Source of the DNA: Ceratodon purpureus
Taxonomy: Eukaryota; Streptophyta; Bryopsida; Pseudoditrichales; Ditrichaceae
Reading direction: 5' to 3'
DNA: 64,000 nt
Assembly (NCBI GenBank): GCA_014871385.1
Contig: CM026429.1
Span: 4,738,083 to 4,802,082 of the forward strand
Positions 1-61,100 of the stretch are shown here, piece after piece. How positions within the stretch are numbered: the stretch's first letter is position 1; every line of letters starts with the position of its first letter. The translations under genes were made by a program, and so were the position numbers. The notes beneath the pieces are model-generated. The model was not told where the DNA came from, did no database searches, and saw only the letters and a program-made list of their open reading frames with translations.

Positions 1-660
1 GACTTTGGTCTTGCTCGCATAATCCACCACGAGAAGCTGGAGAAGACGACCATGATGGCAGGCACATTTGGGTACATGGCCCCGGAGATGCACTACACGG
101 GCAAGGCCACAAAGGAGTCAGACGTGTACAGCTTTGGTGTACTGATGCTGGAAGTTCTTTGTGGCAGGAGAGCAGTCAATCTTCAGGTTGAAGATCCGGA
201 TGGAGAATTCATGCTAGTGCAGAATGTGTGGCGAGCTTATGAAGCTGGCAGCATCCTGAGTGCTGTTGACCCTGGACTTCTGCAAGTAGACCAACTCAGG
301 CCCTCCACGAGCACCGCTGAAATGCTCACTAACTCTAAGGACTTTGAAGCAGAGCTAGTTGATGAGTGCTGTTTCATCACAATTTCAGATATCGCAGCGG
401 ATGCATCTTTCAATGGAAGGGACAAATGGAAAATTGAACATCTGCTTCATTTAGGGCTGCATTGTTGTTTGTCAGATCCAGAGTCTCGGCCCTCAATAAG
501 AGTTGTAAAGCAGGCAATCATGCAGGTGCAACGGAGCAATGCGGGGGACGCAAAAACCGCCTTCACTTCGATGCCACCGTTGCCTTCGACCATGCCTGTC
601 TACGGACCGCTCAGAAATGACAGTATGTATGAGTTGCGCCGTCGATTCCAATCAAGTTAG
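1..660 (+). CDS. L-type lectin-like receptor kinase, C-terminal part (5' truncated by window)
   Basis: The frame is open from base 1, and the first codons are the kinase DFG motif (DFGLAR). The activation segment GTFGYMAPE with the APE motif follows, then DVYSFGVLMLEVLCGRR of subdomain IX and the C-lobe helix with ESRPSI. Spacing and wording (TGKATKESDVYSFGVLMLEV) match plant L-type lectin receptor kinases, plasma-membrane Ser/Thr kinases that phosphorylate targets after ligand sensing. The extracellular lectin domain, membrane span and kinase N-lobe lie upstream of the window. An acidic stretch of about 50 residues between the GRR region and the HLLHLGLHC helix is longer than usual. The protein ends RRRFQSS at the TAG at 658-660. 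Family call is good; the lectin subclass is inferred from the kinase alone. Confidence 0.9.
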   Translation, partial: DFGLARIIHHEKLEKTTMMAGTFGYMAPEMHYTGKATKESDVYSFGVLMLEVLCGRRAVNLQVEDPDGEFMLVQNVWRAYEAGSILSAVDPGLLQVDQLRPSTSTAEMLTNSKDFEAELVDECCFITISDIAADASFNGRDKWKIEHLLHLGLHCCLSDPESRPSIRVVKQAIMQVQRSNAGDAKTAFTSMPPLPSTMPVYGPLRNDSMYELRRRFQSS

Positions 661-1735: not shown

Positions 1736-2431
1736 TTAGAGATGGACCTTCTTCCAGCACAGGTAGTCCTTCATGGAGGAGTTGCCGACCCAGAAGGTGA
1801 CATCGCAGTGATACTCCAACACCACGTCGTGCTTGAAGATGTGGACAACATTCACACGCCCTGGAATGTTGACGCTCATGGCGAACGGCAGCTCGTTCTT
1901 CTTGAAGTCCAGGGACAAGTTGCCAATCGAGTTTCCAAGCTTCAACGAACCCACTGTCACGAGCGCGGGCAACGCCACGGACTTGCCGGGCCGAAGCTCC
2001 CCTGCGGGCATGGAGATGTTACCCACCATGACGTCGTGGTAGATCACATGGATGGTGCTGTTGGTGAACTTGAAGTTGTAATGGTTGGGGTTGTACACGT
2101 TCATGTTGGCCGACAGGGAAGCATTCACGGAGGACGGGCTCAAGGGTCGTGTGTAGTCGATTTTCACTCCGGAGAAGTGCACATTCGACAGCGTGATGTC
2201 CGGGTCCCGGAACTTGAAGATGGTCTGACTGAGCACGATGAGGACGATGGCCACCACCAGGAGCGGGATGCCGCACCATGTGCAACATTTTTTCAGCTTC
2301 CTTCTCTTCAGGATTCTCTTGTGGTGGAGCTCTACTAGAGTTCCCTTTTCTGAGTCTACGGCCTCTACCTTGTTACCGGTGCTGCCGTGAGTGAACTTGG
2401 AGTCCACCACGTCCAAAGCCTCCGCTCCCAT
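1736..2431 (-). CDS. NDR1/HIN1-like (NHL) protein with LEA_2 domain
   Basis: Intronless 231-codon frame starting MGAEALDV. A basic stretch (HHKRILKRRKLKKCC, about residues 37-51) precedes one hydrophobic span (IPLLVVAIVLIVLSQTIF, about 55-72). The rest is a beta-rich LEA_2 domain with the NVYNPNHYNFKF segment typical of NHL proteins and several N-glycosylation sequons (NAS, NST, NIS, NLS, NSS). The topology predicts a type II membrane protein with the LEA14-like domain outside the plasma membrane or in the endomembrane lumen. Family members are linked to defence and abiotic-stress responses; the exact role here is unknown. Length fits the usual 200-260 aa. Start codon is the only ATG upstream of the basic and membrane segment. 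Confidence 0.88.
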   Translation of the reverse strand: MGAEALDVVDSKFTHGSTGNKVEAVDSEKGTLVELHHKRILKRRKLKKCCTWCGIPLLVVAIVLIVLSQTIFKFRDPDITLSNVHFSGVKIDYTRPLSPSSVNASLSANMNVYNPNHYNFKFTNSTIHVIYHDVMVGNISMPAGELRPGKSVALPALVTVGSLKLGNSIGNLSLDFKKNELPFAMSVNIPGRVNVVHIFKHDVVLEYHCDVTFWVGNSSMKDYLCWKKVHL

Positions 2432-4515
2432 GGTTGGATCAACAAGGTAGAACGGCCAGCACTCTGTCTGATTCCGTCCTCTCCTCCGTGATGTAACAAA
2501 TTTACCACCGCAATGTGAAAATGGAACATAGGGAAGCAGAATGGAGATGTAACTATGTCATATCTCAAAACCTGACTCAGGTGACCTGCATTGGAAGAAT
2601 ACTAGATCTAAGAAATCAAGGAGAATATTTCACAAGTTGAAAACTGATCACTGGGAATGGAATAACGAGCACATAGACATTGTCAATAGTCACTAAGCTG
2701 CGCACCCAGGCTCCGGGAGTGCTTGAACAATATCCAACGTCCGTCCTCCGTGAAACAATATCCAATGCTCATCAAGGAGAAGTCTGTGAGAAACGGACTT
2801 CGGAAGTGCTATGTGTCTACATGAAAGATTCAATGCAAGCTGAGAAGCAGCATACTACTATGCAGCTGTCCGCATTCATTCACTAGCTCACCAGCGTTAT
2901 GCATTGCCGGCGTGCAGCATTGGCTACCGTCCTCGAGAGCACCTCCCACACAAATATCACCGATACCAGCAACCAGCTTCAACTTGATGGAAGCTGCATC
3001 TTCAGCAGGTCCTCATGACCAGTTGTGATGATGAGTTTCGCAACCTAATCGCTACCACAAGTCAGTCCTTACAACCACAAGAGGGTACCCAGCTCTAGAG
3101 TGTCCCCGGATTCTGTACTAAGAATCTGCACTTGGATTATCTTCACCACTGCGGATAATAAGCCGGATTATTTGACACTGGACCAACCTGGATGTGTCCT
3201 TCGGATCGAGATAACACGGCAGCTCTTAGGCTCGAGGTCAATCTTTTTAATGCACGTCAACCTGGGTACAAACCATCGATTGACTACCTTCCAGATTCCG
3301 ATAATCTGAAATCAAAAGAAGGATACAGCATTTGCATCCCATCCCAAGTGTGTGTACTGCTGTTGCATTTAGGGGTGACCTACCTACCTTTATCAACACT
3401 GAAGCCTCAAGAGTGCTGATAAACTTCTAACCCTTCGGTGACTCGGCTACGGGGTGATTGAGTGATCAGGTTCTTATAACGTGGTACGTAGGGAGAATGG
3501 TACTTGCTTAAATTCAGGAATAATCGCAGAAGATTTTGGTGAAAGAATGTCGTGATGGATGTCCAAGTGACCACTTGAGATGGTTGCCGTTCAAGGACAA
3601 TAATCGCCTTTGGGTTGACTTCTTATTGCTGATGTTACGTAATAATTCTCACTCAAGGGTGTTGACGTGAGGATTGACACCATTCGGTGAAATTGTCTGT
3701 TAGGCTGGGCATGATTTCTGAACCGAGCAAGATCTGCAGGCACTTATCCGCTGATCCGGCCTACTCAAATGTAGAGGAATTATAGGAAGTGACCCTGGGA
3801 CTCAACAATGACGTTCTACCTTACAGCAACAACCACAGTGAAACATGTATCACATTTGAGGTCAATGAACCACTGCTGGCCTAACCGCCTGAGACTCGTG
3901 AAGCAGTAAAGTATGAACCAAATTTATTGCACCCCGTTCAGGCTGGCCCCAAGCAGGCATGTACACTACATGCCCATTGTGCTGAAATAGTATTTGCAAG
4001 ATCATAGATGGCTATGCAACATCACGTCCACGAACAGCAACACTAAATTCAAAATAATTAAATGATTCAATATGTAATAGGAAATATATAAATTGACTGT
4101 CGTGTTAGATCTCTTCCGCTCGAAGAGTGCCTAGATTGCTCAAATGGTGGAATACTGGCAGCATTTGCTTGCAAGTGATTACTAGACTCAAGATGTTGAG
4201 GACCCAAGGTCTGGACAAGCCCGTGACATCACAACATCGATTACTCTGAATATGAACAAGAAGCCGGAGACCGTGTCTGATCTGACAAACTTAGCAAAGT
4301 ATTTGGCAGAATTTACTAGCAATGAGGACTCCATATGCTGACCAAATCCTTGCACATCCGCAGCATGTGGATCCACAGTCCGACCCTGAGACCTGTTTAT
4401 ATTTCTGAACATTCATAAATTTACAAAAGCAAGAGAAATTCATGGTTTGAAGGACAGTAACTTAGGACTCGACATGATCCATATTGTTACACTGAGCTCA
4501 TCATTCTACGCTTAC
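2432..4515. other. Intergenic, no gene seen
   Basis: Upstream region of the NHL gene and downstream region of the PAR1-type gene, both on the minus strand. Only short frames without recognisable motifs or splice-compatible partners are present. The part near 2432-2900 is the likely NHL promoter, but I see no clear core element that I would commit to. Confidence 0.5.
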
Positions 4516-17091: not shown

Positions 17092-20000
17092 ATGACAATG
17101 AAGACAATTTACTTTGTGCTTCTGCTCTTCCAGGCAAGTTGATTATAATTATACCTATAGATCGTATTATAAAGTTCTAAGTCATGTTCCCTAACTTATA
17201 GCAAATAAATTAATAGACTAGTCGACGTGATGTGCGAGCTTTACACGCCAGTGAATCGGTACTTATTTTACATTCTTGTCTCCTACAGATAGGATCTTCG
17301 TGGGCGGCAGAAGTTGAGAAGACTGCAACAGCTGCTTTCTCTCTTCCGTAAGTTGATTCTGATGGCGTTTCTCTATTAGTTGTCATCATCGTTTAAGGCT
17401 TTGTCTTAATGGCATTCTTCTTTTGATGTCTGGATGCACTTAGAGCTGCCATGTCTGCAGTATAAACATAGACCATTCGCTGATCTATTCGTGGATGATG
17501 CGCACAGATGGAAACACGAGTTACGCGCAGAGAGCACATGTACAATGTACGGTGTGTGCGCAGAGCGCTCAGATGGAAAAGCTTTGAATTGCCCGTATGC
17601 CACACCCGCCGTCACTGTAATTTCTTCTACCCGTTCAATCAGCTTATGTTTTTCGAGATCTGGCACCTTGGTTTCAATTTTCATCTTTGAATTGTCGACT
17701 TAAAAATAATTATTCATTATAACATTTAGATATGAAGTTTTCGGCTAATGTAGCGTTATGTAGGAATGCTGCCTCATAAATTACGATCTTCACGTCCATT
17801 TTTAGAATGAATTATCCCATATCTTCATTCTAGCACAGGAGATTGCAGAATGAGCTAGTGCTACTGTTTCTGTCTTCTCAGCCCTTTTTAAAAAACTGCC
17901 CTAAATTTGCAGCCAAGCGAGGAGTTATCTCAGAAAATTCAGAGCCTATGTCCGAAGCTTACGGACAAGGTTTGCTGTACAAGCGACCAATTTTTCCATC
18001 TCCGCGATCAAGTTCAGCAGGTTTGTTTATACTATTTCCATTTATGTTTTTTGTTTGACAGCAGAAAACTCATTGATCTCTATCCGTCTTTCAGTTTTGA
18101 GTGCAACCACAAGTACGATCACATTTTGTAATTCGTGATTGTTTTGCGCAGGGCGCAAGTAGTTGCTGATAGATATCAGTCTTTCATATGTTAAGGCAAT
18201 TGAGCTAACTTAGTAGGATTTGTATACGAATGATGCAGGCTGTGCCGTTCTTGACTGGATGCCCAGCATGTTTACGCAATTATCTGGACCTTTTTTGTGA
18301 AATTGCGTGCTCTCCCAATCAAAGCCTCTTCATCGACGTAACTGATGTTCACAATGTAGGTTTTCCTAGCTTGAGAGTTTGTTGTAAATTCAAATGATTT
18401 CTCGATCTGTCAGGTATCATTATTAGGGATTATAATGTTTCACGCGGCTCTTCCGAAATATTTAGTCTTTGTTGTATCAAAAATCGAGTAGGTCTATCGA
18501 CTGCAGGGATATCTTTCCTGTTCTAGATAAATTTAAGGAAGTTACACGCCGATTCTCATTTTGGTACATAACCTAATATCGAATTTCGAGACCTGCAAAT
18601 GTAAAGGTTTCTTTTGTATCTTAGAAGGGTCGTGGCCGGTTGCTGGAAAATGATGTTCTTTGAATTTTCTTATCAGGATTCCGACTCGAAGAGCGTTCAA
18701 GGAGTTGATGTATACGTTACTGAAGATTATGGATCAAGGCTCTATGATTCATGCAAAGATGTAAAATACTCATTACCGAATATGAGGGCTATGGACTTCG
18801 TTGGTGGAGGTGCCAATAATTACACAGGTCAGGATCATTTCACTCTACTTCCGGCTCTTCATTGCAGTGGCATTCTTCATTTATTTACAATTCATCCTTA
18901 TGCTACAGTGTGGGCTTAGTGTTTTAGTATGCAAAGATGCCTTATATAATTGCTTTTCTACATTGTGAGTTAGCTTTCTAGATAATGAGTGCTAATAGTG
19001 CTTTAATCTACTTCGAGTTTCTATGATGCATGCTACATATTTTCTTATATACACTTCGTCTTCCTTCAGATTGGTTCGGGTTCTTGGGTAAAGAGGCAGA
19101 GCTACAGCAGCCAGGTTCTTCTTTCAATATGAAATTCCGGACCCCAGGCACCAATGACGTCAACGTGAAACCTCTCGATCTCACGGTGACCGCATGCTCT
19201 GATCCATCTCTAACTTGCTCGTGTGGAGACTGCCCATCTGCTGCCATATGCACAACCCTGCCGCCCGACCAACCCAGCCTACCCATGTGCGCAGTTTCTC
19301 TTGGCTCATATGAGGTCCGTTCCAACTCTAACACAGTTTACTATATAATTGCACCACTCTTTTGTGTAACAAATAGATCTCGAAATACCCAAGTGAAAAT
19401 CTATCTCAAACAGCATTGCACTTGGCCAATAATTGACTCAGTCAGTTTGTTGAATGTAGTTGGTTTCAGAACAATGAATTCAGCTCATCAACTACTAACA
19501 CAATTCCATTCCAAAACGCACATTGAAGTAAATAATGATCTTTATCTAGGCCATCTCGGAAGCATATAATTTTGAAGGGTCCTGTAGACAAGTTTACACG
19601 GTTGCTCATCATCTGGTGATTTCTATGGCGCGATTTTTTAAGAAAGGAGTCTCCTGATTCATACGAGAGCAGAAAATGTTGTACTAGCTATGTTTCATGT
19701 TGGAGAACTGTCTGATTGATGGAATCGGACTATGTTTTGCAGATCGGATGCCTCCCAGCGTCTATGATGATTTTGTATGGTGTCATCTTGTTCATCTTGT
19801 TCGGCTGGTGGTGGACGTTTCATGCACCCGGCATAGAGGATTTGGTGGAGCCACTTATGGCGACCTCTCAGAGCCAGGCGTCCCTGTACGATGAAGCTGA
19901 TGAGATTCAACAAGCTGATGTAAGTTTGTAGAATTTCGTTTCTAAATTCAGGTGGATACTGAGTAATCAGCCATATCATGGCGAGGATAGCCATTCAGTT

Positions 20001-40200: not shown

Positions 40201-41899
40201 TCCTTGACTTTGTTCTTGGAGAATCACGGCCCTTCCCTATTGAAATACTGTTTGGTGACAAGGTAATCATCATTTCTTTGTTAACATTGAGCACAAGCTC
40301 CACTGTTGTAGACCCAATCTTGAAGTAAGTACAATTTACTTCGTCAATCAGAAAACCATAGGAATTGCGAAGAAAAATCTAGGCAGCCACAGTAAAGCCA
40401 CTCTCTGCATATTGTGTTTGTCACAAGGATCTGTCCTCCTACTTGAATTTCAATTCGGATGTTGTGCAGTATGCGGAGGTTGACGAAGCGAATTGGCAGA
40501 GACGGCTAGACGTGATTCAAAGCAGGTTACCTGCATATATCGAGCTGCTGAATGAGCAAGACGTCTCAAAACTAACAGGGCCTCAAGTAAGCGCTTATAA
40601 CCCCGTCATTCCCTACCTTATACTCTTCAACTTTCAACGGAATTAGAACCGGCAGGTTTACAGTGGAAATTTCTTCCTGAGCATTTTCTTTGTCTTTGAA
40701 ACAATTACACCAGGCATAGTTTGATGAGAAACAATACAGGATAATATGACTCCTCTTCAGCACTTTCCAACCTATTAATTCTTGAGTTTCTTACTTGGGA
40801 GTCAATCAAGCATGACATGACTCTCTGCAGACCATCTGTTGTGAGAGTGTGTTTTAATTTCTATCGAAAATTATGCCTAACTAATGTCCTTATTTGTTCA
40901 AAAAGGCTCGAAGTGCTTCATGTATACAGAGCCTTCGGAAAAACGCAAGTTTAAAAGCAGGGGCTACTCTGCCACAGGAGATTATCGCAGTGGTGAGGCC
41001 AAAAGCACATTCATGTACTAGTCCAACGCCCTTGGAGCAGAAGTATGTGTTTACAGAGTCCATGGAGATGAGCTTAGAGGTGTGTCAAGTGAAATTGCCT
41101 CTAAGTTTGCAAGTTTCACTTGACGAAATCAAAGCAAAATCTGAAAGAAAACACGAGACGAAAGTGACACCGTCCGCAAAAGGTGGCTTGAGAGGCTTGT
41201 ATTGTTTTAGATTGGCTGGTACCGAACTCGAGAGCTTCTTAAGGACAACTGGGACATACGTTTTCATCTTCACTCTGGTATGTGACTATCCTCACAATTC
41301 TGAACATGTGAACATCATCTTTGGTCGTTCAAATAGAAGTTAATTTAAGCATTGCAGTCAATAATGAGGACTTGCAGCGCTTGATAATAATTCCTTGATA
41401 ATAATCTTGTGCAAAGTACTGTACATTCCTGACTCTCTAAAAACCACTTCAGTTTCAAGCTCAGCATCGGAGTTAGGCTCCGATCCAGATTAGACAAGTA
41501 TCTCCTAAAACGATGGCCCCCACCGGTGATAAGTGTAATGTCACTTAATCGTCTTGATGGTTGAACTCTTCTAGAGAAGACGTTAGGGTCTGATTCTTGA
41601 CTAATTATATTGGTGTGACTAAAATTTGTTTAGGTGAGTGTGAAGTACAAGGAGGTGCAGAACCATAATTTTCACATAGATATCACACCATCCTCTAAAA
41701 TAGGACATTGGAATATATGTTCCCATCCTGGGATCTGCAGTGAGCACCACCCAGATAGAAATCCAGAAGTGATGAAAGTAAGGTGGGTTGTTCGGATTCT
41801 GAGCTGGTTGTGCTTACCTTCACTTCATCTCAACCTTAATGCCGAGGCAAATGCAATTTATGTACGTGCACATGGATTCCCTGTCAATATGACTACGTA

Positions 41900-41964
<65 letters not shown>

Positions 41965-44900
41965 TTATAAATTTTGAAAACAGTTTATGTTCGTGCTTGG
42001 ATATTACATATGGTTCCGATTGTTAAATTCATCTATATTTGAAAATAAACGCAGGCTTGGAGGGTTGCTTTCTGGAACTTTATACCTCACACGAGTTGAT
42101 GAGTTCAGCAATCCAATGGAGTTTACAAGAATCCCTACAGATGTCAAATGTGACATCTATTCTGTAGAAGGGAACCAAGTCGAGATCTCAATTACCATTG
42201 TAAAGGATCTGATAAAGATATCAGATGACCACCTCAGTCTTGAAATCCCGGTTTGACTCTGACCTGGAACTTTGGCAAAACTCTGCAATTGTTGAATTGT
42301 TGAATCCCGGGGACGGGCTCCAAATAACTAGACTTGTCATCGTATTAGCTCATGAATATATTATCATCAACTTAGCTTCAGGAAGCAAGTTTTGGATATG
42401 AACGAATTGTTGTCTTTTGAAAGTTAAGACAATTTGATTGTGCTTGTTGAGAGCAGAGAATTGAAGTTGGTGGAGGAAAGCTTGAACTACTCAAGCAGAC
42501 TATGAAGGCTGCATTGAAGATGAGCGTTGATGGTAACCCGGCAGCAGACTTCCCAATAGCAGGTCGAAATCATTCTTCCACAAAATGTATCATTTCTCAG
42601 TGAATATTTACATTTACATAGTACAGGTTGACCAGTTTTCAATATCAATTTACGCTTTTAAAAGTGTGTATCGTGATCTCTATCCTTCAAGAGATTCTAG
42701 TTTGGTATATCATTAGTCCAGGCTGGAATCCTAATTGGCTTGCTTAAAGTTCTATTTAGGTCGTTTTAATTGATTTTAATCACGGCGTTTTAAATGACTC
42801 TCATAGACTTTCACTAGACTTTCACTTCCAAAATTCTCAATACGTTCAATCCTCAAAATCGCAGTGTTGCCGGGACAACCAGCGTCAGCTCGAATCAAGG
42901 AGAATAATGCACCCAAAGGCGGTCTCAAGCCAGGGCAGGTCTTCGAAAATATCATCTTTGAGGTAAAATTTCTAGCTCGAGAAACTTTTGCTAGAACTTC
43001 TTCAGTTTCAATTAATGCACGCTCTCAATTGTTATCCTCTGTCCGATGTGAACACATCCTCGCCAATTGATTCTGTACCTTGGGAAGAACTAGTGGAACT
43101 TCAGTGTGTAGAGACTGAGCCAACTCGGACATTGAAGCAATAGTATGTGGTATGTGCATATGCAGATTCTGGACAGATATCAAAATCCCGTTTCTTCGGG
43201 TGAAAAAGTCAGAGTGCTCTTGGATGGCTTCGAGTGGCAGGATAAATTTGAAATCGAACGTTCAGTAAGTTCATCTTTTTCTGCGCGCTAAATTACGTAA
43301 AAGTTTAAACAAGAGCAGTCAACAGCTGCAGATTGAACTACGGCTTGCAACAGGATCTGGACTGATCATATACGTTGTTACTGTGATCAAATTTAATACA
43401 CAGGTAGATGAAAATGGATGTCTGGACCTTGGAATGCGACTCCGCGTCACAGCGGGCTATGGAGAAACAGGTACATATATAATGTCATTGATACCAGCGT
43501 GGATGAGTCAGGATTGACGAAGTGGATCAATATCCTCATCATACTTATTGTCTTTATCTGATAAGGATTATTCGTCGAGACCACTATCATCCTTGTTGAA
43601 ATGAAGTAAATTAATTCCGTGGGTCTCAATGGATGTCTGCAGCTCGTGTGGAGTTTCGGTCTACAGAGGACTTGCCTCTGTGGGATACAGCATTCGATAT
43701 CATCGATCGGAAGCTTCGGGTCATGAATGTATGTTCTGGATTGCATTTTAGATTTTACTTCTGTGCATAATTTTCCTTAGGTGAAGCATTGATTGGCGGT
43801 GTAGAAGAGAGGGTAAGAGTATTATGCAGCTACTTGGAAAGTTAACCGAGTGTTGAAATATGCTTCATATTAATTTGGTTTGCTGGGGTACTTCAGGATA
43901 TTCCAGAGCGCGTAGCAGCGGGGTCCCAATTGAAGGACATTGTGATTGAAGCCGTGGACGAAGTTGGGCAAGTAGATAATACGATGGATGGCGTCGATCA
44001 TACCCTCTCACTAGATTGGGATCCCAGTATTATTGTTCCATTACATCAAGGGCGATGCACGGTTCCACCCATTCAAATTCCACACACTCCTGGAAAACTG
44101 TGGTTAGGATGTGTGGCACATACAAAAAATTCAGAACTAAAAATCCTTTTAACGGTATGTTTGCAAATCTGAACTTTAGTGACTGAATCATTAAATACTA
44201 CATTACAGTCTAGTGCTAGCATGTCAAATAAAGAAAATTTTACAATTCATTATGCACTAAGTTTGAGGATGCGTGTCCTGTCAGGTTGTGATAGAAGAAC
44301 ATGAAAAAGGTGGCGATGGATCGATGGCTTCAGAGAATCCACCTAACGACCCTGGGAATCTAGAATCTCCAGCTGTCCCGACTCGTCATTTCAAATCAAG
44401 CATTTTCCGTAAGAAAGAGGTTCGAGAAGTATCGCCTGATAATGAAAACAACAAGATTCGTAAAGCGGAACTTCAAGCTGCTGTGGACCGCAAGGTAAAT
44501 GTAATATATCATAAATTTCTTAGATCTTTATGAACACTAAATCTATTGATCACGAGGATCAATAACTTGAAGAACTTGTTAGTTATCTATCCAGCATAGA
44601 TAGATTTAAAATATTTTCAATCTCAGTCTCGATGCACCATCGTTGTTTCTAAGCACAAGAAGCCTCAAGGGCGAGTAAGTCTTAATACATCCTCTTCGTT
44701 CACTCTGCGGGGATTCATTTCTGATCGTACTTGTTTCCAGAAACTGGAGGACAAACTTAAAAACCAGAGATCGAAGGTGAAAAAGTACGGCAATAAACTC
44801 AACGAACTTAAACGAATTAAAAAGGACCATGACGATGCGATGAAGCAATATCAGGGTAAGATCTCTCCACTCAAAACCCCCTGACAAACTGTAATTGAGT

Positions 44901-46737: not shown

Positions 46738-48402
46738 GCATAAATCTTTACATTTTAGAGATGATTAAATTTCAGGAATAGCAGGATATTAATCTCTTAC
46801 AGCAATCGTTTCATGTTCATGCAATTTTTGTGTTTTCAGCAAGACATATGTTGGCTTCTGTATATATATTAGGCATAGTGAATTACAGACAAAGACGCAG
46901 TTAAATTCCTCAAGTAAACCTCGTAAATGTTGTTTAAGCAACTTGTGATGGTTTTGAAAACGTTCTTTCCTCCTTTGCAACTTTCTTAGTAAATCTATGT
47001 TCTTATCGCACACACTGAATTTAGTACCAGTAATCATGAAGTCACTGCCTCCTTGTGAAATCTTATGTTTAGTTTGTGGGTACTTACATAATCAAAGGCT
47101 AAACTTGAATTGCAAGACTACCTGGACTTATCCCATGATGAGTCATGACGTTACATGAATATAAACACTAGTTTAAAACACGCATTACAATGTGTTTCAG
47201 TGTCCAATTAGTCTATGTGCATAAAACGATATGAGATGGCATAAGTTACAACAATCAGTGGACAAGCAGTTTGAACATACTGAAGAAGTACATGTTGCTA
47301 ATGCGTATCAATTAGATAGTGTACCAATTAGATAGTGATCTTTCAAGTGACCACAGGAGTTTCAGGACAACGTTATCCCGGCCGAGAAAGATGTGCACTG
47401 ATTTCCTGCTCCTTAATGCTGTAGGATGTTTGCCGTGTCCACTACCGAAGCACTAAGAAGATTTTTCCGGCAAAAATATAAACCGGCAAGGTTAAGAAGT
47501 TTTTGGTATTTGTTAGTTATAGAGTAGACCTGTTGCAAGGTATTCAAGGATTTCTCTTAATTTCAGCGCAGCTTGTGTCATGATTGCATCTTAGAATGTG
47601 AGAAATCACAGCTGGTTGTTTAGAACCGAGTTTACATGCACTGAAGCTGTATTTGGCAACCAAGTGCTCTGAGAGGGTTCGAATCTCAACATAATTGAAA
47701 TTCACATACCGAGGCGAAGATACATGAGAGGGCGTATTCAACTTGGATGCCAGGTGTGACGAGAATGACGATCAAACTCGCCATTGCAGCTGCAGATTTG
47801 CTTTTGGATGCGTTTGAGGAATTCAGAAACTTATCCATGTCACTGGCACATCCACACATACTCTCGTCGTTATGTTTGACTGTTACTTGGGCCTTGTAAA
47901 ACTCCTATTCTGATTTTTCTTATACGCACTTGAAAGCTTGAAGAAATAGTGTAAATTATTGTTTTCTGTTGAGAGTTTATTCGGGAATTTTTGAAATTAT
48001 CTATCACGTGATAGGTGACCGGATCATGAGAGCATAGGACGAAAGCATAGAATCTTTCTAGTTTTCAACTATTACAGGGTACTGTTATTATCACGAAGGC
48101 ACCAGACTCATTTCAGAATGTTTGCAATTGCTGCATTGGAACAGAAAGCGTGTCAATATTCAATGAAGTACGTGAGTTTATCGAATGACAATTCAACTGC
48201 AAGTTGAGCAAAATGACGATTAGATTAATGTATTATGTAATCACAACAGACATGAGAATTTAACAGAAGTAACATGAGCAAGCTCATTTAGTATGTATGG
48301 CAAACGTAAAAAAAGTGATAACAAAATAGGTATTAAGCCACTACCCAACTCGTGCAATTCAGATTGCCTGATTCTTAAAAAACAGGACTCGATTGTCAAA
48401 AG
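46738..48402. other. Intergenic between convergent genes, no gene seen
   Basis: 3' flanks of the GMI1-like (+) and glutaredoxin (-) genes. A short direct repeat containing AATTAGATAGTG occurs at about 47310-47338. No coding or RNA gene signal is convincing. Confidence 0.55.
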
Positions 48403-48659
48403 CTAAACCTTAGATGTTTCTACATTCGGAGAAGAGAAGTTTCTCTTAAGTGGAGGTCGGCCGGGGCGCCTAGTCATGCGAGCCCTGATACGGTGCACGA
48501 CAAGAGGTTTGGCAGCTACCCAAGCGAGGAACATGGCCATCATGATAGCTGCACCTATCACTGGTGGCCATATTCTTGAGTAACTGAACGGAACTTTCTG
48601 CTGCTCAGCACCACCATTTCGAATGGCATCTGCAAGCTTCCCAGCAGAAAGTACATCAG
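48403..48659 (-). CDS. Alternative last exon 4b of the glutaredoxin gene, encoding a membrane-anchored tail
   Basis: Open for 84 codons after a good acceptor (GGGTGCAG/CTGATG), with two bases completing the phase-1 codon left by exon 3, so exons 1-2-3-4b are in frame (196 aa in total). The sequence starts DVLSAGKLADAIRNGG, an alternative to exon 4a's [15 protein letters not shown] at the same place in the fold. It then has a hydrophobic span (VIGAAIMMAMFLAWVAAKPL) and a basic tail (RIRARMTRRPGRPPLKR). It is also in the same frame as exon 4a, separated from it by one TGA at 48676-48678. Interpretation as a mutually exclusive terminal exon is inferred; transcript evidence is lacking here. Confidence 0.65.
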
Positions 48660-48675
48660 CTGCACCCCGGCCGGT

Positions 48676-50140
48676 TCATAGTTCAGACTTGAAACTCTCC
48701 TCCTGGCGAACAGAAGAAGCCTTCAGGAGCTTCTTGAGCTTTCCGCTCTGCTCAGCAGCAACAGTGTCTGTACCCCCAAAAAAGCGAAGGAACAGAGAAT
48801 CAAAATTGAGAAATGCTTAGAAAGATCCAACACAGACAGATCAGTCAATAAGACCGCTAAGCCCTAGACAATCCCATATCTGTTCACTTTGATTTGTAAT
48901 TGTGATTTACCCCAGTCATCTTAAACTTTGAACCACACTAAGTTGAAGCCTCATTCTTGGAATTAAACATATATTTAATCGAAGTAAAACAATTGATGTC
49001 AGAGGATACCACTCACATTCACTCATATATTAATAAAAATGGTAAGCGGCTCATCAAAAAGAGAAAAGAGAAGAAAAGATCGTACCATCAGATCCTCCGA
49101 TGTGCTCGCCGTTGATGAATACTTGAGGAACAGTCCGGCGACCAATGAACTTACCCAGCGCCTGTTGAATGGCATCTCCGTCATCTGCAATTAGGTGAGA
49201 AAGTGTCGTTAATGACAGTATCATGAAAGTACACAACAATCGAATAATTGAACTGAAGAATTCGCAAGTGTTCATGCACAGGCTCTAAACCGCACCACAT
49301 AGTACACTGACCTTGATTCACAGCTTGCATAAGATTAGACTAACTTAGACTACCCTACCATCATCTAAAACCACTTCACTTCAAAAGGGGGTAAAATCTG
49401 TGTGTTAGAACTTAGAATACACTAGAATGCAAAGAATACATAAAGTCCCACTCGTACCTCTTTCGTCAAGCTCAATAACAAACGGGGTCTCCTTCATGTT
49501 CTCAAAGACGGACTTGGCACGCCTGCAGTATCTGCACAACAAATCGTCAAAAATATCAGCATTGTGGCAACAACGCTCCTCACGATACAACCGAACCTAA
49601 ACACGAAGAAAAAGCTGACACCACGGTACTACCAGCCTAGATTAACCACATCTCTAAGAACTCTTCCAACAGAGCAGATCGACAAGAACACAAAAACGCA
49701 CCCCGACAACCAGAAAACCCAACGAGACAGTCTCGTCCCGGAGGACCCTAAAACTCGAAAGTAGGACTCCAATGTCAAAATTCCGAGAAAAATTCACCGG
49801 AATATTCAAGGGCAGGGGGTTTCAAGTGAGAGAAAAAACCCACATGAAGGCAACTTGTGGGACAGAAAACAAAACACATGCAATCGGGGACGAAAACCTA
49901 AACCCAGGAAACTAGAGGAAGACGATGATCTAGTGAAGAGAATGCCGAGGGATCGGTAGGAGTTTTGGTTCCAGCTTACGGGCAGTAGGATTTGGAGAAG
50001 ATGACGAGCTTGTTCTCGGCCACGACCTTCTTCACATACGCAAGCTTGTCACTTCCTCCCTCGACTGGCGACCCCAGCTGCAAGACCACCAGAACCGCCA
50101 CTGCGAGCGAAGCCCATGTGAGCATACGCGTGGAAGCCAT
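48676..50140 (-). CDS. CPYC-type glutaredoxin with signal peptide (isoform a, last exon 4a)
   Basis: Exons 49980-50140, 49458-49531, 49086-49184, 48676-48767; 141 aa. The N-terminus [20 protein letters not shown] is a signal peptide or anchor. The thioredoxin fold follows: [13 protein letters not shown] with the CPYC redox site split by intron 1, ELDERD, then [19 protein letters not shown], the glutathione-binding TVP and GGSDD motifs. The end is SGKLKKLL...FKSEL. The layout matches secretory plant GRXC3/GRXC4, which reduce protein-glutathione disulfides using GSH. ATG 50140 starts the hydrophobic segment; an upstream in-frame non-ATG extension is ignored. The C-terminal KSEL only loosely resembles an ER-retrieval signal. 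Exon 4a competes with exon 4b (listed separately). Confidence 0.92.
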
Positions 50141-51629
50141 GATCTCTCTCAGCTGCGTCGCGAGCAAACCCGTCTCCTGATGCGATCAGGTGCAAAATCA
50201 GCCCACAAACTCTGCGGAAACTTCAAGCGAGTCTGGGTTTTGTGGGTCGTTTTCTGGGTTGAGAGGATGCTTCGTGGGTTTGCGTGGCTACATCTGCAGC
50301 GCCCCTGTTTTTATCTAACGGCGACGGATGATGCGAGACCAGGACTTGACTGATGTCATTCGGCACTGAAAACCGAAGTTATCTACCAGACAAGTACGTT
50401 GAAGGCTCTGAAATCTCGTCTAAGCATAGATGATGCAGGTTTTGGAACAGTGAGTGACGGTTTTGGATGTGCACATCTTGGTTTCGAGATCCTCTTTCGA
50501 TGGCTTCATCCTCATGTCTGTTGGATTGATTCGGTGGAGCTTGTAGTTAGGGTTTATCGGAGGTAGTTGAATTTTTGGGGTGGGGTTATGAATTTGTTGA
50601 AACAAGTGGGGGATTATGTAGAAGATGGAGCATGTTTCCGGGTGAATTAGAGGTGGCTAATGGCATGTTAGTTCGAGGATTGTGTCAATTTCAAGTGCAC
50701 AATCCTGAGACGTGCTGGTTATGAAGTCGGTGGGTTGTATTGGTTTCGCATTTTAATCCGAGTTGTCTGTGTTACGACGATGTTTGTGTGGCATTTCCTT
50801 TCTGAAATGGGGGTCGTCTATGTCGATTGTTTTACACACGTTCTATTGCCTCAGCTTCAAGAATTGAGAGGCATTTGCTTGGATGTTTGATGGTATTCGA
50901 TTGAGCCAGTCTAGAATCCTGCGATTACAAACCATGATAGTGAGTATCTGCGGTATGCACCTGATTAGATTTAAGTCAGCTTTGGAGGTTGAACTTTGTA
51001 GACGCATGTCAAGATTCATCAACTCCGAAGGTTAGCCGATGTAGCAAATATTGGCCTGAACGTGAATTAATGAGATGGGTAATTCTTAGTCATGGGCACA
51101 AAGAAACGGTAACTTCGTGATTTGGTGATTCGTTTGATACGAAGAAGAGATGATCCACAAGATGACCATTAAATTTGGACCGGATAAGTCATCTCAGTTG
51201 AAGGAGACATGTCATCAAAAATGGGATTTCGCGGCACTATCAGAAACGCTCAGTACATCCAACCAACACATGCAAAGCAGAAACTGATATCTCCATTCTG
51301 AGTCGATCGCAAGCTATAGCATTATCCAACACAGCTCCTCAGCAATGGGACTCCAGTGACATATCATGTCAAAAACAGAATTGTGCAAAATAAATACCGT
51401 GTGACAAAGGTTTCGGCTATGGATAATCAAGGGTACAGTGGCAATTTATATTACTCAAGTAAGCCGATTGAAGTGGCCAAAATGTGGTCCTCAGCATTCC
51501 TACTTGCTGGATACTGAAGAAGATATACTCTGCTTTACAAGTAAATCGAATGGTCCTCGCAAGAAGGTACCAATCACAGCGGCTAGGCCGAAAACCTCAA
51601 AGATATGACATGCTATTAAGTTTACATCT
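50141..51629. other. Intergenic: glutaredoxin promoter and geranylgeranyl reductase 3' flank
   Basis: The first part is the presumed promoter and leader of the glutaredoxin gene (- strand); the last part is the 3' UTR of the reductase. No further gene seen. Confidence 0.5.
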
Positions 51630-53198
51630 CTACACAGTCATCTTCTCGGACTCCTTCCGCAAGGCATTGGCTCTAATCAGGCTCCCAATAGTGTTGAACG
51701 CAAGCTTAATGTCATCCAAAGGATTTCCGGGAACCACCACCTTGTACAAGTAGCTGTCGAAGGTCATCTTCTGGACGTAGTCATCGGCACACATCTCCAC
51801 GAACGCCTCACGAGCAGGGTTCGACCTGTAGAATACCTTCTGCAAGATATCCAACACCTTGTATGTGGCCCAGTACTTCTTATCCCACTTGTCGAGGTAC
51901 ACTCTCAAATCAGACTCGTTCACCATGCGGGTTCCGTTGGCGGATCCCTCAACGATAGCTTCAGCACACATACGCCCGGACTTCGCAGCGAAGTAGATAC
52001 CTTCACCTGAGCACTTCGTCACGTACCCTGCCGCATCACCAATCAACGCCACTCTGTTGCTCAACCTGCGAGGCCTGGGGTGCTCCGGGATGGGATGTGC
52101 CTCCACTCGGATGATCTTACCTCCAGCAATCTTGTCCTTCGCCCTGTTCCGGGTGGCGGTCTGGTACTTCTTAATGGCCGGCTTGTTGATCACGGTGCCG
52201 GTACCCACGGCGACATGGTCACACTTGGGGAATACCCACCCGTAAAAGTCCGGCGACACATCGTCTCCCACATACATCTCGGCCAAATTCTCATAGTACT
52301 CCATCTTATCCGCAGGAATCTTAATCCTCTCCTGGAAGGCAATGGCGTAATCATACTCACCAGCATCGATATCCTTCGCAACTCGGCTGTTGGCACCGTC
52401 GGCTCCAATGACGGCATCCACCTCCAACACAGCCGGGGTACCCAGCTTCGACGACCCATCGAAGTTCGTGTAATGGAGCTTGTACGGGGAGTCGTCATCC
52501 TTCGGTATCTCCATCCGCAAAAACAACCCATTGATAATCGAAGCTCCGTTCTTCTCCGCCCGCTCACGCAAGAACGAATCTAACACCTCCCGCCTCACCA
52601 TACCAATATACTCGTCATCGTTCAAGGTCTTCCCGACATCCACCGCGACATTCGAAGGCGAAATCATCTTCATCTTCGTCACCTTGCGATCGATAATTTC
52701 AGCCGGCAAGTCGAACTCCCCCACCATGCACAGCGGAATCGCACCCCCGCACGGCTTCGCATTGTCCAACTTCCGCTCGATCAGAAAAGTCTCAACTCCA
52801 CCCTTGGCCAGAGTCTCCGCAGCGCACCCTCCCGCAGGCCCACCTCCCACAACCGCCACTCGCAGCTTCCGCCCCTCGATCTTCTTACTCCCCCGAGCAG
52901 CGTACACGCGCAACGGCTGGTAACCTACCTGCTCCTCCACCGCAGCACCCCGCTCCGCCCTCAAGCTCTCCACTGCAGACGCCATCCCCGCGCCATCTCC
53001 CCCTCGCAGCCCCTCGAACGACCTCAACGCAGTCCTCTTCCCTGCAGCGCCGAACCCGAGCGACGAGCTCGTCACTCCACGAGCCGAAGCACAAGGCACC
53101 AATGTGGCGCATGTGGAGTCGTGGTGTGAGGCGATGGAGCGCGAGGACGACGCGAAGGTGGCCGGGGACGCGGCTGCGGCGACCTGCAGGGATGCCAT
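51630..53198 (-). CDS. CHLP: Geranylgeranyl diphosphate/chlorophyll reductase, plastid
   Basis: Intronless, 522 aa from ATG 53198, which has a good context and is followed by an Ala/Ser-rich transit peptide (MASLQVAAAASPATFASSSR). A FAD/NAD(P)-binding Rossmann start follows at about 113-145: RVAVVGGGPAGG, then ETFLIERK, and NAKPCGGAIPLCMV. The second flavin motif GDAAGYVTKCSGEGIYFA is present, and the C-terminus is NALRKESEKMTV. The enzyme reduces the geranylgeranyl side chain to phytyl with NADPH, giving phytol for chlorophyll, tocopherol and phylloquinone in the plastid. Length and order match plant CHLP throughout, with no frame break. Earlier non-ATG in-frame codons are not used. High confidence. 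Confidence 0.97.
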   Translation of the reverse strand: MASLQVAAAASPATFASSSRSIASHHDSTCATLVPCASARGVTSSSLGFGAAGKRTALRSFEGLRGGDGAGMASAVESLRAERGAAVEEQVGYQPLRVYAARGSKKIEGRKLRVAVVGGGPAGGCAAETLAKGGVETFLIERKLDNAKPCGGAIPLCMVGEFDLPAEIIDRKVTKMKMISPSNVAVDVGKTLNDDEYIGMVRREVLDSFLRERAEKNGASIINGLFLRMEIPKDDDSPYKLHYTNFDGSSKLGTPAVLEVDAVIGADGANSRVAKDIDAGEYDYAIAFQERIKIPADKMEYYENLAEMYVGDDVSPDFYGWVFPKCDHVAVGTGTVINKPAIKKYQTATRNRAKDKIAGGKIIRVEAHPIPEHPRPRRLSNRVALIGDAAGYVTKCSGEGIYFAAKSGRMCAEAIVEGSANGTRMVNESDLRVYLDKWDKKYWATYKVLDILQKVFYRSNPAREAFVEMCADDYVQKMTFDSYLYKVVVPGNPLDDIKLAFNTIGSLIRANALRKESEKMTV

Positions 53199-55120
53199 GG
53201 CTGCGAGGCGCAAGCAGATGATTGTCTAGATTTTTGTCTAGAGACGCGATGCTCTAGTGCCACTGCAGGGATGCCGACCTTGAGCTTCGGAGGAGGGAGA
53301 TTAATACATGGAGGGAGAGGAGGGCAGGGCAGTGGAGTGGCGATGGTGGGACTGGATAAGTTGAGGTGCGTTGGGGCCTGATTGGAACGCCCACCACCAC
53401 CAGATCACTCTCCGTCCTTCACTCGGTTCCTCCGTTTCTACCTTTTCACTGAATTTTCTTCCACTTCATAACCAAATTGCTACACTGGAATAATTGGTGG
53501 TTAATTGTTGTGAAGGTGTTTTGGAAACATGAGAGATTAGATAGCTAGATAGTGAGGAAATGTTAAGGTTTTTAGCCGGGGTACTGGTTGGGTATCGATA
53601 TGTTATCGCCGAAGTGTTGCCGAGGTATTGTCTTGGTGTCATGTGAGTGTTGGGGAAATTTTTGGTTACTAGGAAAGATTGAAGGGAAAAGGGATTACTG
53701 CTTACTTTGTGCCTGTCTTTGATGGTTGCATGGACGTTGCAGACGCTCCTCCTTGGGGTGGTTTTGCATTGAGAGCCTGCACATGGTGATATCATGTAGG
53801 TAGGTACCTAAATTAGTTGAGGTGTGGAGTTGGGGTTGACTTCTGGGTTTGTAAAATGGAGAAGAGGTGACTGGAAACAACGAAATTCGGTGTGAGCATG
53901 GTGAATAAATTACAGTTTTGGTGTCTATGTTTATGAGGTTTTTCTCTATCTTAAAAACAGACAAATTTCTCGACTCACCGTAGTCTTTGTCAAGGTTATA
54001 ATTGTGTGGTTCCTTCATGCAGGATTCATGCTCTGAAAGGAAAGAAAAGTCAGCCCAAGTTCAGGCCCAAAAATTGACTCGCATCTAGAATGAAACCTGT
54101 AACACTCTTCAGTGCTTGGACATAGTAATTTGAACTCTTTTACTAATTGGGTATTACGTGTTGAGCTCCTGAAATCAAACTTATCTCTGGCAGATAAGTT
54201 TGATTCCTGAAATCTAGAAATGAGGAAGGTAATAACGATTTTTGGGGTAAAGTGACGGTTCTGCATCTGAACATTATGCGTTTAAGCTTCGACATTGTGT
54301 TCTAAAGCTTTTGACATTATCTATTCCAGCTCTAGATTTACAGAGGCTCGAATATTTGTTTTTCTAGTTGTGCAATGATAGCACAATGACGTCGAGGGGG
54401 AAGGTAGGTATGTAGGGGACAGTGCACGGAACCAGGTAGGAAGCTTGGAGGGGAGAGGTCCTCGGGTGAAGGATATTTGGGAGCGAGGATATTGGCCCAG
54501 GAGCGTACCTGGCTTCTCCTCCATTGGTTGCCACCGGTACTTCAGTATCTACTGTTCTGTCTCTGACTTCATTCTCCTCATGTTCTGATACTTGTTCTTC
54601 AATCTTGGATCTTTTACTCGTGGACTGCATTTTGAGCCTCGGAGGAGCTTTTCCGGTTGGAACCTGCCTTTTTCGCAGCTCTGTTTGTAGGTCCTCTTAC
54701 AACAGAAAGGTGCGGATGATGGAACCCTTCACTTAATAATTGGCGGTCTACAAGGCTTCTATTGAAGCACTTTCGAAATGCATCAGTAATTTCAGAAGAT
54801 ATTTGTAGCAGGTGAGGAGGTGCACTCAAATATTTAGCCGCAGTGTTTACCGTACGCAAAGATGCCAATGACATCAGACTAAATATCTGCATACTCGGCA
54901 GAGGAGTTGAAACAGGGTACAAGTGACGGTTCTTCTAACCTTCTCGAGTGAAACCTCGTCAAAGAGCACTAATCCCGAAAGTGATCGGATCAAAGAATAA
55001 TCCAAGCTGTGGTAGCAGTTTCAAGCATGAAACTGTGAAGCTTGTAACTAGAGCCTATAAATACTAGAGTGACTGAGGGGAGACAGTAAACGGAGATGTT
55101 CTAGGGAGAGGATTCGTTTT
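53199..55120. other. Intergenic: reductase promoter and NAA25 3' flank
   Basis: The part next to 53198 is the reductase promoter and leader (- strand); it contains a GATAAG I-box-like word at 53354. Frames at 54321-54922 show no family motif. A perfect hairpin at 54174-54204 is listed separately. Confidence 0.5.
54167..54214. repeat. Perfect 13-bp hairpin flanked by 10-bp direct repeats
   Basis: ATCAAACTTATCT (54174-54186) and its exact reverse complement (54192-54204) surround the loop CTGGC. TCCTGAAATC occurs on both sides (54167-54176 and 54205-54214), overlapping the left arm by three bases. It looks like a tiny foldback insertion with duplicated target, or a replication-slippage product. 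Confidence 0.85.
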
Positions 55121-58100: not shown

Positions 58101-61100
58101 CCAACAGACTACAGCCTAGTTGACTACTGATATTGCAAAATACAAATTAAACATGCAGCATAGCAACAAGAGTAAGAAAAGATCTTTAAGTGTTTAGCAC
58201 AAAAACACAAACGCTCCTAACATCCGTTGGGTTCAGAAGCATACCTCCACTAAAAGGTCACTAATTAACGTCAAAAATTCTCCTCCAAGCATAGCTTCTT
58301 GAGAGTCCACTTCTGAAGAAAGCTTCACACTCTCGAGAAATAGGTGCCCAATCTCTTTAGCGGTGTCTAACAAGCCTGTAAATACAAGTTCGCAATGGTC
58401 AAAAGGCTACTCAAGGCATGTTTCAAGAGCACAATGCTGACAAAAGCTATCACATGTCTTGCAGAAATAAAAATAGGTTCAGAAAGAAGAGTACCAGCCT
58501 CAGAAGCATGTGCACGCAGCCAGCCCAATCGTCCTTCCACTTGAAAAGCAGCCAACCGGAAGTGCAATGCCTTAACAGGTGTTGTTTCTGCGGGCAGATC
58601 CTGACAATATCGATGCAGTTCCTGGATGAGCCACAATTGTTGCTCTTTTCCAAGGTGTAGTATAAAATCCATAACATCTGATGTGAAGCTGGCCATGGAC
58701 CCAAATCTGGAGGAACAATGGAGCACATTAATATGCCTTTCATAATCAACAGAAAGAAACCCTGATGGAAATTCAAAATCATGCTATACATTGACTAAGA
58801 AGCACCCAAGAACTCAAATTTGAGAAGAACTGTCTCGAGTCAATAGCCAGAAACTCCACAATGACCTGACTTAAGATCAACATTAAACCTAAAGGCCATA
58901 CCAAGCAAGAAAAAAACCCAGGTTCGTTCAAACTGCACCTTTGATAGTACTTAAAAATCGATTGCGCCAGACGTGCAGAAGACGCATCTGCTTCACCCGT
59001 ATGTGATGTCAAGATCAAAAGCCTTTTCTCAATTTCCACTTCAGCAAGATAAGGCCCTCGACGAACGTCTGGCACTTTCAGAGCTTGTAGTTCAAGCACA
59101 AACGCATGAACTCGCTGCAGTAAAGACTCTACCTGCCAATCACCAGATAGGTTATATTTCAAGCCATTATATGCAACGATTTCAACTAACTATTCCCTTT
59201 CATCATCTAGGGAAGATTACAGTAACTACCAAGATAACATTCATTGAATTAAGAACAACATGCTTAATAAAACAACTGACAATGAATCCGGCTTTCAGGA
59301 GAGTCTGCGATAGCAGAGTATGTAAATCAACTACAACCCTCTCTATCAGAAAACAAGTTACAGACTTTCAGGGTTTCTTATTTCCGGTCATGAACCTTTT
59401 TCTCTACGTACAAAGAATCAGTACTAATTTACAAAGCTTTATAGGTTTCAGGGGCAGTAACCTCTTACCTCCTCTTTCCTACTGGATGTCAAAGAGAGCG
59501 ACTCTAGCTCATTGGAAACTGGGAGCACAGGTTTCAGCGTTGCATCCAGAAACATTTGAAAAGCAGCCCAATCATCTGAACTGCAAAACATAAGCCACAC
59601 TCAAAATTGCGAAACCAACAAGAACATGTGCTTCACATAGCTGGATTTAACTTGCATTTTGAAATTTTAGGAAATAAGAGGAATCCTTCATAAATATTCA
59701 CTGATAAAGTTAATCACAAGTTCAAGCCAAAGTCCGAGCTAGATAGAAGCAATGCTGCCGGGATACCAAAACGCATACCTGATCTTCAAGATTTCTTGAA
59801 ACACATCTGCTGCCTCTTTATGCTGATTCAAGTGTACAAGGAGCTCTCCCTGCAAGCTTAATGATAGTCCACGCCAAATCAACCGACTGTTAAGTTTGTG
59901 TTGAATCAAACACTATACACTAATCAAACGAATGTTTTTCAACATCAGAATTTTCGAGACGAAAAGTCCGATCCGAACGTGACATTTATCACAACACCAA
60001 ATAGAATCTTATAGTTCGTGAAAAAACTAAAAATAAATAGTATATTTAGATTACGATTTTCCAACTCATATCTAACAAGAAAATAGCTGAGATCCTAACA
60101 TACCTGCAAACGCAACCGATCAATGCCAATTGTGAGCAGGTCACCTGACAGCCCCTGCAACAACTTCAACGCATCGCCATACTTTTGCTGGCGCTTCAAA
60201 ATATCGATATAAACTATAACTCCTGCAATGCACAGACCGGGTCAAACCTCCAGAACAAATCCATAATAACAGGGAGAAAAATGGGAACAGGAGTCTGCCA
60301 GTAGTGCTCAATAACACAATCATTCTAATCCTGACAAACTAGGGAGTTGTTTCCAATCAATATGATTTAGTGTAATACAAGTACTAATTTGCCACCTCAC
60401 ACAATTCATGAATTACCTTCACGATCCTGAAAACCCTGAGCCTGAAAGTGTTTCTTCAGCATTGCCTCCGCCAATGGGAGAAGTTTGATATTGTTATTGG
60501 CCTGTAAGTTGGTCATTTTGCAGTGTAAGTAGACAACACTGAATTAGGTCTTTTTAACCTAGATCGTTTCATACGAACAATATCCTGGGCATTTTATAGA
60601 GAGAGAGACCAATAGAGAACCATTATATTCAATCTGGTATTGTGATCGCGCGAAATAGCTTCATAGTAAAACCTATCCGCATAATGCAAACAATAGCGGC
60701 ATTCTGTTACGTTGTGAATTTTTAACATGACGTCAATGCATGCCATAAACCCGGGCATTGCTTTCATAGCAGTAACTTTAGCTCCAGACGGATGGCCTGA
60801 CATATCTGAAACACTATCCTTAATTACATCCCTTCTGGGGAAAACGTGTCTTAAAATTCGCAATGTCTCCACAATAAATAAGGACATGTAATAACAAACC
60901 TGTAACAAGATGCTGCAAACGGCCCACAGCAGAAACCTCTCTTCTCCAGCTACTTTATACAACCTAATTGCAACCTGTCCACAGTTGAAAACCCAGCCCA
61001 CATTCCCAGTCAACAGTGAAGTTCATACCCAATAACTCCCACCTCTTTCATTCATCTCACTAATACTTAACATGCAGCTGCGAGAGAGACATAGTTTCAA

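What the first reader, a model, noticed from the sequence alone, without database searches (positions are those of the whole stretch)
48403..49184. Glutaredoxin gene with two in-frame, apparently duplicated last exons giving soluble or membrane-tailed isoforms
Exon 3 ends in phase 1 at GSD/G. Two downstream acceptors both restore frame: exon 4a ([15 protein letters not shown], ending KSEL) and exon 4b (DVLSAGKLADAIRNGG, then a membrane span and a basic tail). Both encode the final fold helix with a GKL core, suggesting an exon duplication followed by divergence. The two are in the same frame, separated by a single TGA, so stop readthrough would also join them. One locus could supply a lumenal and a membrane-fixed CPYC oxidoreductase.
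Basis: partly seen in the sequence, partly recalled or inferred. Interest (0 to 1): 0.75.

Follow-up and report, generated by a model that had tools for sequence, protein, structure and literature searches.

The report
Glutaredoxin gene with structured stop-codon extension
A moss-like plant gene for a secreted redox enzyme is followed, directly after its stop codon, by an unusually strongly folded stretch of RNA that could also be read as a membrane anchor, so ribosomes that ignore the stop might make a membrane-fixed form; no expression data or relatives were available to prove it.

Summary
The glutaredoxin (Grx) gene is real: exons 50140-49980, 49531-49458, 49184-49086 and 48767-48676 (minus strand) join in frame to a 141-aa CPYC Grx ending KSEL. 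The in-frame tail after TGA 48678-48676 is also real: 90 codons with a hydrophobic span and a basic end. The proposed mechanism is not supported: 74% of 3965 AGs on this strand score as high as acceptor 48659 or higher, and the exon duplication is no better than shuffles (352 of 5000). A four-way junction, 48673-48458, starts 2 nt after the TGA (z -6.2, 0 of 300 shuffles; tail 0 of 400 same-peptide shuffles). Tail DNA and protein each matched only themselves in the 362-Mb genome. Best reading: one terminal exon with UGA readthrough promoted by this RNA, giving a minor membrane-anchored isoform. A structured, untranslated 3'UTR is the main rival. Codon usage is undecided. No relative of the tail was found, and no expression data were available.

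The parts
49980..50140 (-). Exon 1: ATG, hydrophobic signal-like N-terminus, up to the first part of CPYC
   Evidence: hydrophobic segment [19 protein letters not shown], mean KD 1.89
49458..49531 (-). Exon 2: rest of the CPYC active site, ends in phase 1
49086..49184 (-). Exon 3: [17 protein letters not shown], ends in phase 1
48676..48767 (-). Exon 4 canonical end (4a): last Grx helix, C-terminus KSEL, TGA at 48678-48676
   Evidence: the five alignments shown run through the GKL stretch; acceptor 48767 scores 5.7
48403..48675 (-). In-frame 90-codon extension ORF ending at TAG: hydrophobic span and basic tail
   Evidence: no Pfam match at E up to 1 and no PDB match at E up to 10 for its last 85 residues; only itself in own genome; helices at residues 4-16 and 27-62 of an 85-residue single-sequence model, mean pLDDT 65, block means 86 and 89 over residues 31-50
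48458..48673 (-). Predicted RNA domain: closing stem 48673-48662 / 48469-48458 (12 bp), hairpins 48657-48587, 48586-48513 (22-bp stem with a 5-nt bulge, then 7 bp) and 48504-48470 (coordinates counted by me from the dot-bracket string)
   Evidence: z -6.23, 0 of 300 dinucleotide shuffles; whole tail z -5.57, 0 of 400 same-peptide shuffles, closing-stem pair probabilities 0.98-1.0; same fold when the predicted mRNA from the ATG to 47980 is folded
48629..48629 (-). [quoted passage not shown] would give GSD-DAIRNGG
   Evidence: score 4.8 against 5.7 for the 4a acceptor and -1.7 for 48659; no expression evidence
47976..47981 (-). Only AATAAA in 48676-47400; the canonical mRNA would then carry the RNA domain in its 3'UTR

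Best explanation
One terminal exon (48767 to beyond 48403) carries two messages. Normal termination at the TGA gives the soluble, signal-bearing CPYC Grx ending KSEL. Directly after the TGA the mRNA folds into a 216-nt four-way-junction domain that hinders termination. A minority of ribosomes then decode UGA and run through the open frame, adding a C-terminal membrane anchor with a basic, presumably cytosolic, tail. Shown by computation: gene structure, open frame, predicted fold, no second copy. Inferred: translation of the tail, stimulation by the fold, topology and function.
For: Fold far stronger than dinucleotide shuffles (0 of 300) and than shuffles keeping peptide and codon counts (0 of 400, z -5.57). 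Of 13 other presumed coding 270-nt pieces given the same-peptide test the lowest was -3.6. Of 2026 window-wide 216-nt pieces 10 were at or below z -4 and 1 at or below -5 (minimum -5.71; 12 shuffles each, rough). The domain starts 2 nt after the stop. The frame continues that of exon 4a and is open for 90 codons (302 of 20000 shuffles); in-frame runs after the stop of 19 other long ORFs, picked by eye as likely genes, were 0 to 69 codons. The extension has a plausible membrane-anchor layout. No second DNA copy was found in the genome. Precedent: readthrough was inferred for 144 Arabidopsis genes, TGA was over-represented, 8 extensions carried a membrane helix, and A/U were commoner at -1 and +1 of the stop, as here (PMC9293766, passages). 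A stem-loop after the stop promotes readthrough of Drosophila dfr (PMC13170385, passages and one section).
Against: Codon usage does not show the tail to be coding: 569 of 2000 shuffles score as high, and 11 of 85 uncharacterised open stretches of 84 codons or more in the window also do; 170 of 3000 shuffles and 12 of 182 GC-matched windows with a second training set. With a third it lies at the 34th percentile of 68 coding pieces, 16.5% of 218 GC-matched non-coding windows score as high, and its own frame does not beat the others. Three-base periodicity is modest (41 of 2000 shuffles, 10 of 375 non-coding windows), weaker in the first half (94 of 2000) and absent in the second (957 of 2000). 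GC drops at the end of the RNA domain (0.56 to 0.38), not at the ORF stop (0.38 to 0.35), so the fold alone could account for the composition. One other window piece (41896, minus) has a rough z as low as the whole tail's. The closing stem starts at +6 (T of TGA = +1, assuming the paper counts likewise), closer than the +9 of dfr. UGA-A is not a known leaky context (recalled). No conservation or expression data.
Confidence: 0.38

Rival explanations
1. The region after the stop is an untranslated, structured 3'UTR element (stability, localisation, translation control or small-RNA precursor); the open frame is incidental.
For: The fold is the strongest signal, codon usage is undecided, and GC follows the domain rather than the ORF. 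The GC-rich domain alone stays open in 1207 of 20000 shuffles.
Against: The whole 90-codon frame with a hydrophobic span is rarer (8 of 20000). It needs the frame and the anchor-like layout to be accidents. No Rfam family reaches its gathering score in 47800-50600; 2 sub-threshold hits in 48300-48800. The 5-nt bulge in the long hairpin is unlike a standard miRNA duplex (recalled criterion).
Confidence: 0.3
2. Chance: an ordinary 3'UTR that happens to be open and foldable.
For: One other 216-nt piece of 2026 reaches a rough z of -5.7. Openness alone is about 1.5%.
Against: Openness, fold, frame and position right after the stop all have to coincide.
Confidence: 0.15
3. Alternative splicing from 49086 into the tail (48659, or 48629) makes a membrane form without KSEL.
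For: Frame-compatible; 48629 scores 4.8, close to 5.7 for the 4a acceptor, and by reading would restore GSDD.
Against: 48659 scores -1.7 with 6 of 16 pyrimidines. Either acceptor would sit inside the very stable fold. It does not explain the fold or the open frame right after the TGA.
Confidence: 0.1
4. The tail was once part of one long protein and the TGA is recent, polymorphic or an assembly error.
For: 4a and tail are one continuous frame broken by one TGA, and the 16 nt from 48675 to 48660 are 81% GC, unlike the introns.
Against: The Grx domain is complete at the TGA and ends KSEL, an ER-retrieval-like ending (recalled). It does not explain the fold. Five other Grx-like loci of this genome, read by eye, show no such tail.
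Confidence: 0.07

Closest known systems
Plant class I glutaredoxins of the C3/C4 (secretory) clade
   Same: CPYC site, signal-like N-terminus, IGGSD rather than IGGCD; the clade is described as CPYC with predicted secretory targeting (PMC3866529, PMC8256493, passages)
   Different: KSEL ending followed by an in-frame membrane-anchor-like ORF and structured RNA; no phylogeny was built here
Arabidopsis stop-codon-readthrough genes with membrane-helix extensions
   Same: In-frame extension with a membrane helix; TGA over-represented in the readthrough set (PMC9293766, passages)
   Different: No footprints or conservation here; the passages I saw describe no such large RNA fold for those genes
Drosophila dfr readthrough with a downstream stem-loop
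   Same: Stable RNA structure just after the stop, within the sequence of the extension (PMC13170385, passages and section 19)
   Different: Here a 216-nt four-way junction starting at +6, not a stem-loop of +9 to +59; UGA rather than UAG
Yeast Grx6/Grx7
   Same: Glutaredoxins of the secretory pathway, in the cis-Golgi (PMC6584808, passage)
   Different: Grx6 is monothiol (chain name); membrane anchor at the N-terminus (recalled), not a C-terminal one

Membership tests
Plant class I glutaredoxin, C3/C4 type | Glutaredoxin domain | tested here: met
   PF00462 E 1.6e-18; 67 PDB sequences at E up to 0.001, best 5.1e-27
Plant class I glutaredoxin, C3/C4 type | CPYC site and IGGSD rather than IGGCD | tested here: met
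   Sequence; definition from PMC3866529 (passages)
Plant class I glutaredoxin, C3/C4 type | N-terminal secretory signal | tested here: inconclusive
   Hydrophobic stretch, mean KD 1.89; no signal-peptide predictor available
Plant class I glutaredoxin, C3/C4 type | Phylogenetic placement | not tested
   No tree built
Programmed stop-codon readthrough gene | Long in-frame open extension | tested here: met
   90 codons; 302 of 20000 shuffles
Programmed stop-codon readthrough gene | Coding signature of the extension | tested here: inconclusive
Programmed stop-codon readthrough gene | Stimulatory RNA structure at suitable spacing | tested here: inconclusive
   Strong predicted fold but it starts at +6, against +9 in dfr; no effect on readthrough tested
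Programmed stop-codon readthrough gene | Ribosome footprints or protein beyond the stop; conservation | not testable with these tools
   No expression data; no relatives of this genome held
Alternative last exon by acceptor 48659 | Usable acceptor with pyrimidine tract | tested here: not met
   Score -1.7; 74% of 3965 AGs score as high or higher; 6 of 16 pyrimidines (tables recalled)
Duplicated exon | Similarity above chance in the GKL register | tested here: not met
   352 of 5000 shuffles as good, 344 of 5000 with a longer tail piece. A DNA match in another register (AEQ) is reached by 2 of 2000 simple shuffles, in CAG/GCT-rich sequence
Transposable element insertion | Other copies in the genome | tested here: not met
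   Only itself in 362 Mb at E up to 10; the tool skips simple repeats and very common words

The most novel reading that the evidence does not exclude
A plant nuclear gene uses programmed UGA readthrough, driven by a large four-way-junction RNA domain that itself lies inside the extension's coding sequence, to split one secretory glutaredoxin into a soluble KSEL form and a membrane-anchored form.
Probability: 0.3. Interest if true: 0.72.

Novelty: new member of a known kind. Interest (0 to 1): 0.45.

Why it matters
If true, it would be a plant case in which the RNA element, the stop codon and the membrane-anchor product can all be tested in one small cassette, and it would put the localisation of a secretory-pathway redox enzyme under translational control. 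If only the fold is real, it still marks a structured 3'UTR element, without a second copy found in the genome, worth testing.

Tried and rejected
Duplicated-exon idea: rejected in the stated register. Acceptor 48659: rejected on score. Introns inside exon 4 that would remove the TGA in frame: 68 combinations, best sum 7.3 (donor 48688, acceptor 48484), which would remove the hydrophobic span as well. Acceptor 48419 (6.1) would, by my reading, only give a truncated Grx ending GSDETSKV. Selenocysteine: considered and dropped, since the stem shows ordinary pairing and land plants lack the machinery (recalled). miRNA hairpin: considered, 5-nt bulge. Known RNA family: none at gathering score in 47800-50600; 2 sub-threshold hits in 48300-48800. 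Transposon: no second copy found. Relatives of the tail: none confirmed in viral contigs (38 pattern matches) or genome contigs (479 pattern matches), which are viral and prokaryotic; none but itself in the own genome. Codon-usage tests did not decide. Literature searches. In the listings (20 of 26, 3 of 3 and 10 of 11 papers shown; titles and abstract starts only) I saw no paper on glutaredoxin readthrough or a glutaredoxin membrane-tail switch; one search found no paper with all its terms. Slips: exon 2 was one base too long, so its isoform and tail queries were read in a wrong frame (the translations were corrected; the within-window protein search was not repeated, but the tail's DNA search and the genome searches cover it); one line scored 48631 where 48629 was meant (the table there has 48629).

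Full report
What is there. On the minus strand a four-exon gene encodes a 141-residue glutaredoxin: MASTRM... with a hydrophobic N-terminus, CPYC, TVPQVF, GGSDD and a C-terminus KSEL. Pfam Glutaredoxin matches at 1.6e-18; 67 PDB sequences match at E up to 0.001, the best at 5.1e-27. After TGA 48678-48676 the same frame stays open for 90 codons to TAG at 48405-48403. This tail has a 19-residue stretch of mean hydropathy 1.98 and a C-terminal +8 segment. A single-sequence AlphaFold model of its last 85 residues has helices at 4-16 and 27-62, with block means of pLDDT above 62 only over residues 31-50 (86 and 89), around the hydrophobic span. Those 85 residues have no Pfam match at E up to 1 and no PDB match at E up to 10.

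Both joins keep the frame, but 48659 is a poor acceptor: score -1.7 against 5.7, 8.6 and 9.5 for the gene's own acceptors, and 74% of 3965 AGs on this strand score as high or higher (tables recalled). 48629 (4.8) is the better frame-compatible site nearby and by reading would give GSD-DAIRNGG, skipping the GKL on which the duplication idea rests. The duplication is not supported: 352 of 5000 shuffles reach the protein score. A DNA match in another register is reached by 2 of 2000 simple shuffles, but it is CAG/GCT-rich and not the claimed alignment.

The RNA domain. Folding the tail RNA gave z -5.20 with 0 of 200 shuffles as stable; a second run gave -5.69 for the tail and -6.23 for 48673-48458, 0 of 300 each. 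Keeping peptide and codon counts leaves z -5.57, 0 of 400. The same test on 13 other presumed coding pieces ranged from -3.6 to +1.8. Across the window, 256 pieces of 273 nt had minimum -3.8 (one piece overlapping the domain was -3.7). Of 2026 pieces of 216 nt, 10 were at or below -4 and 1 at or below -5 (-5.71 at 41896 on the minus strand). These scans used 12 shuffles each and are rough, and that one piece matches the whole tail's value. The domain limits were chosen after seeing the fold, which flatters -6.23; the tail limits were not. The closing stem pairs 48673-48662 with 48469-48458 at probability 0.98-1.0, also within the predicted mRNA from the ATG to 47980. The only AATAAA in 48676-47400 is at 47981, so the ordinary mRNA would carry the domain.

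Is the tail coding? Openness: 302 of 20000 dinucleotide shuffles; with a comparable hydrophobic span 8; with the basic end 1 (features picked after the fact). In 19 other long ORFs of this genome, taken by eye as likely genes, in-frame runs after the stop were 0-69 codons (some of those stops may lie in introns). Periodicity: 41 of 2000 shuffles and 10 of 375 non-coding windows reach it; 94 of 2000 for the first half, 957 of 2000 for the second. Codon usage against three training sets: 569 of 2000 shuffles and 11 of 85 uncharacterised open stretches as high; 170 of 3000 shuffles and 12 of 182 GC-matched windows; 34th percentile of 68 coding pieces with 16.5% of 218 non-coding windows as high, and no advantage of its own frame. 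The GC step lies at the end of the fold (0.56 to 0.38), not at the ORF stop (0.38 to 0.35). So the coding case is suggestive, and the fold is the firmer result.

Relatives. The window's own genome is held (362 Mb, 151 contigs, no relatives). The tail protein and its DNA matched only themselves there, which speaks against a transposon. The Grx protein had 22 matches, 4 of them its own exons. Of the 16 other loci fetched I read five by eye: two that look C1/C2-type (L007, L009), one that looks C5-type and intronless (L003), and L010 and L012. I saw no comparable tail beyond their last exons (the last exon of L010 is uncertain). Types are my reading of motifs, not a tree.

Mechanism. I favour UGA readthrough from a single terminal exon, helped by the fold, at 0.38. 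It explains why the frame continues exactly from the stop, why the fold starts 2 nt later, and why the extension looks like an anchor. Against it: undecided codon usage, spacing +6 rather than +9, and no expression or conservation. A structured untranslated 3'UTR element (0.30) needs fewer claims but leaves frame and anchor to chance. Chance (0.15), splicing (0.10) and a recently gained or false stop (0.07) follow.

Known background. Readthrough in Arabidopsis was inferred for 144 genes, with TGA over-represented, 8 membrane-helix extensions and A/U preferred next to the stop (PMC9293766, passages). A stem-loop after the stop, with defined distance and stability, promotes readthrough of Drosophila dfr (PMC13170385, passages and section 19). 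C3 and C4 Grxs are described as CPYC and predicted secretory, final destination not known at the time of that paper (PMC3866529, passages). The phenomenon is therefore of a known kind; this would be a new member with an unusually large RNA element (unusual against the dfr case and my recollection, not a survey).

Noticed in passing
window 41770-42111, both strands: Other strongly foldable pieces (rough z -5.7 on minus, -4.7 on plus at 41896), perhaps an inverted repeat or small transposon.
   Followed up: no
window 51633-53225 (-), 1739-2557 (-), 18605-18916 (+), 1-657 (+), 58782-59189 (-): Neighbouring genes by Pfam: geranylgeranyl-reductase-like, LEA_2, NPC1 N-terminus, protein kinase, and a below-cutoff NatB/MDM20 match.
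   Followed up: partly
L010 (G000:C13:12287884-12287988, minus): Grx-like gene with exon-like pieces SFCKKTKEIF... and [20 protein letters not shown], and a possible last piece LKESGKLYELLKQMPP; unusual GGCSG motif.
   Followed up: partly
L012 (G000:C10:1289592-1289693): Another Grx-like gene whose last exon runs on into a charged C-terminal extension (EEEVRKIEAEGAKAVEE) before its stop.
   Followed up: no
window 48679-48690 (-): Canonical C-terminus KSEL resembles K/HDEL-type ER-retrieval endings (recalled), relevant to whether the soluble form stays in the ER.
   Followed up: no
window 48419 (-): Best-scoring acceptor in 48800-48400 (6.1, good pyrimidine tract); use with exon 3 would by reading give a truncated Grx ending GSDETSKV.
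   Followed up: no
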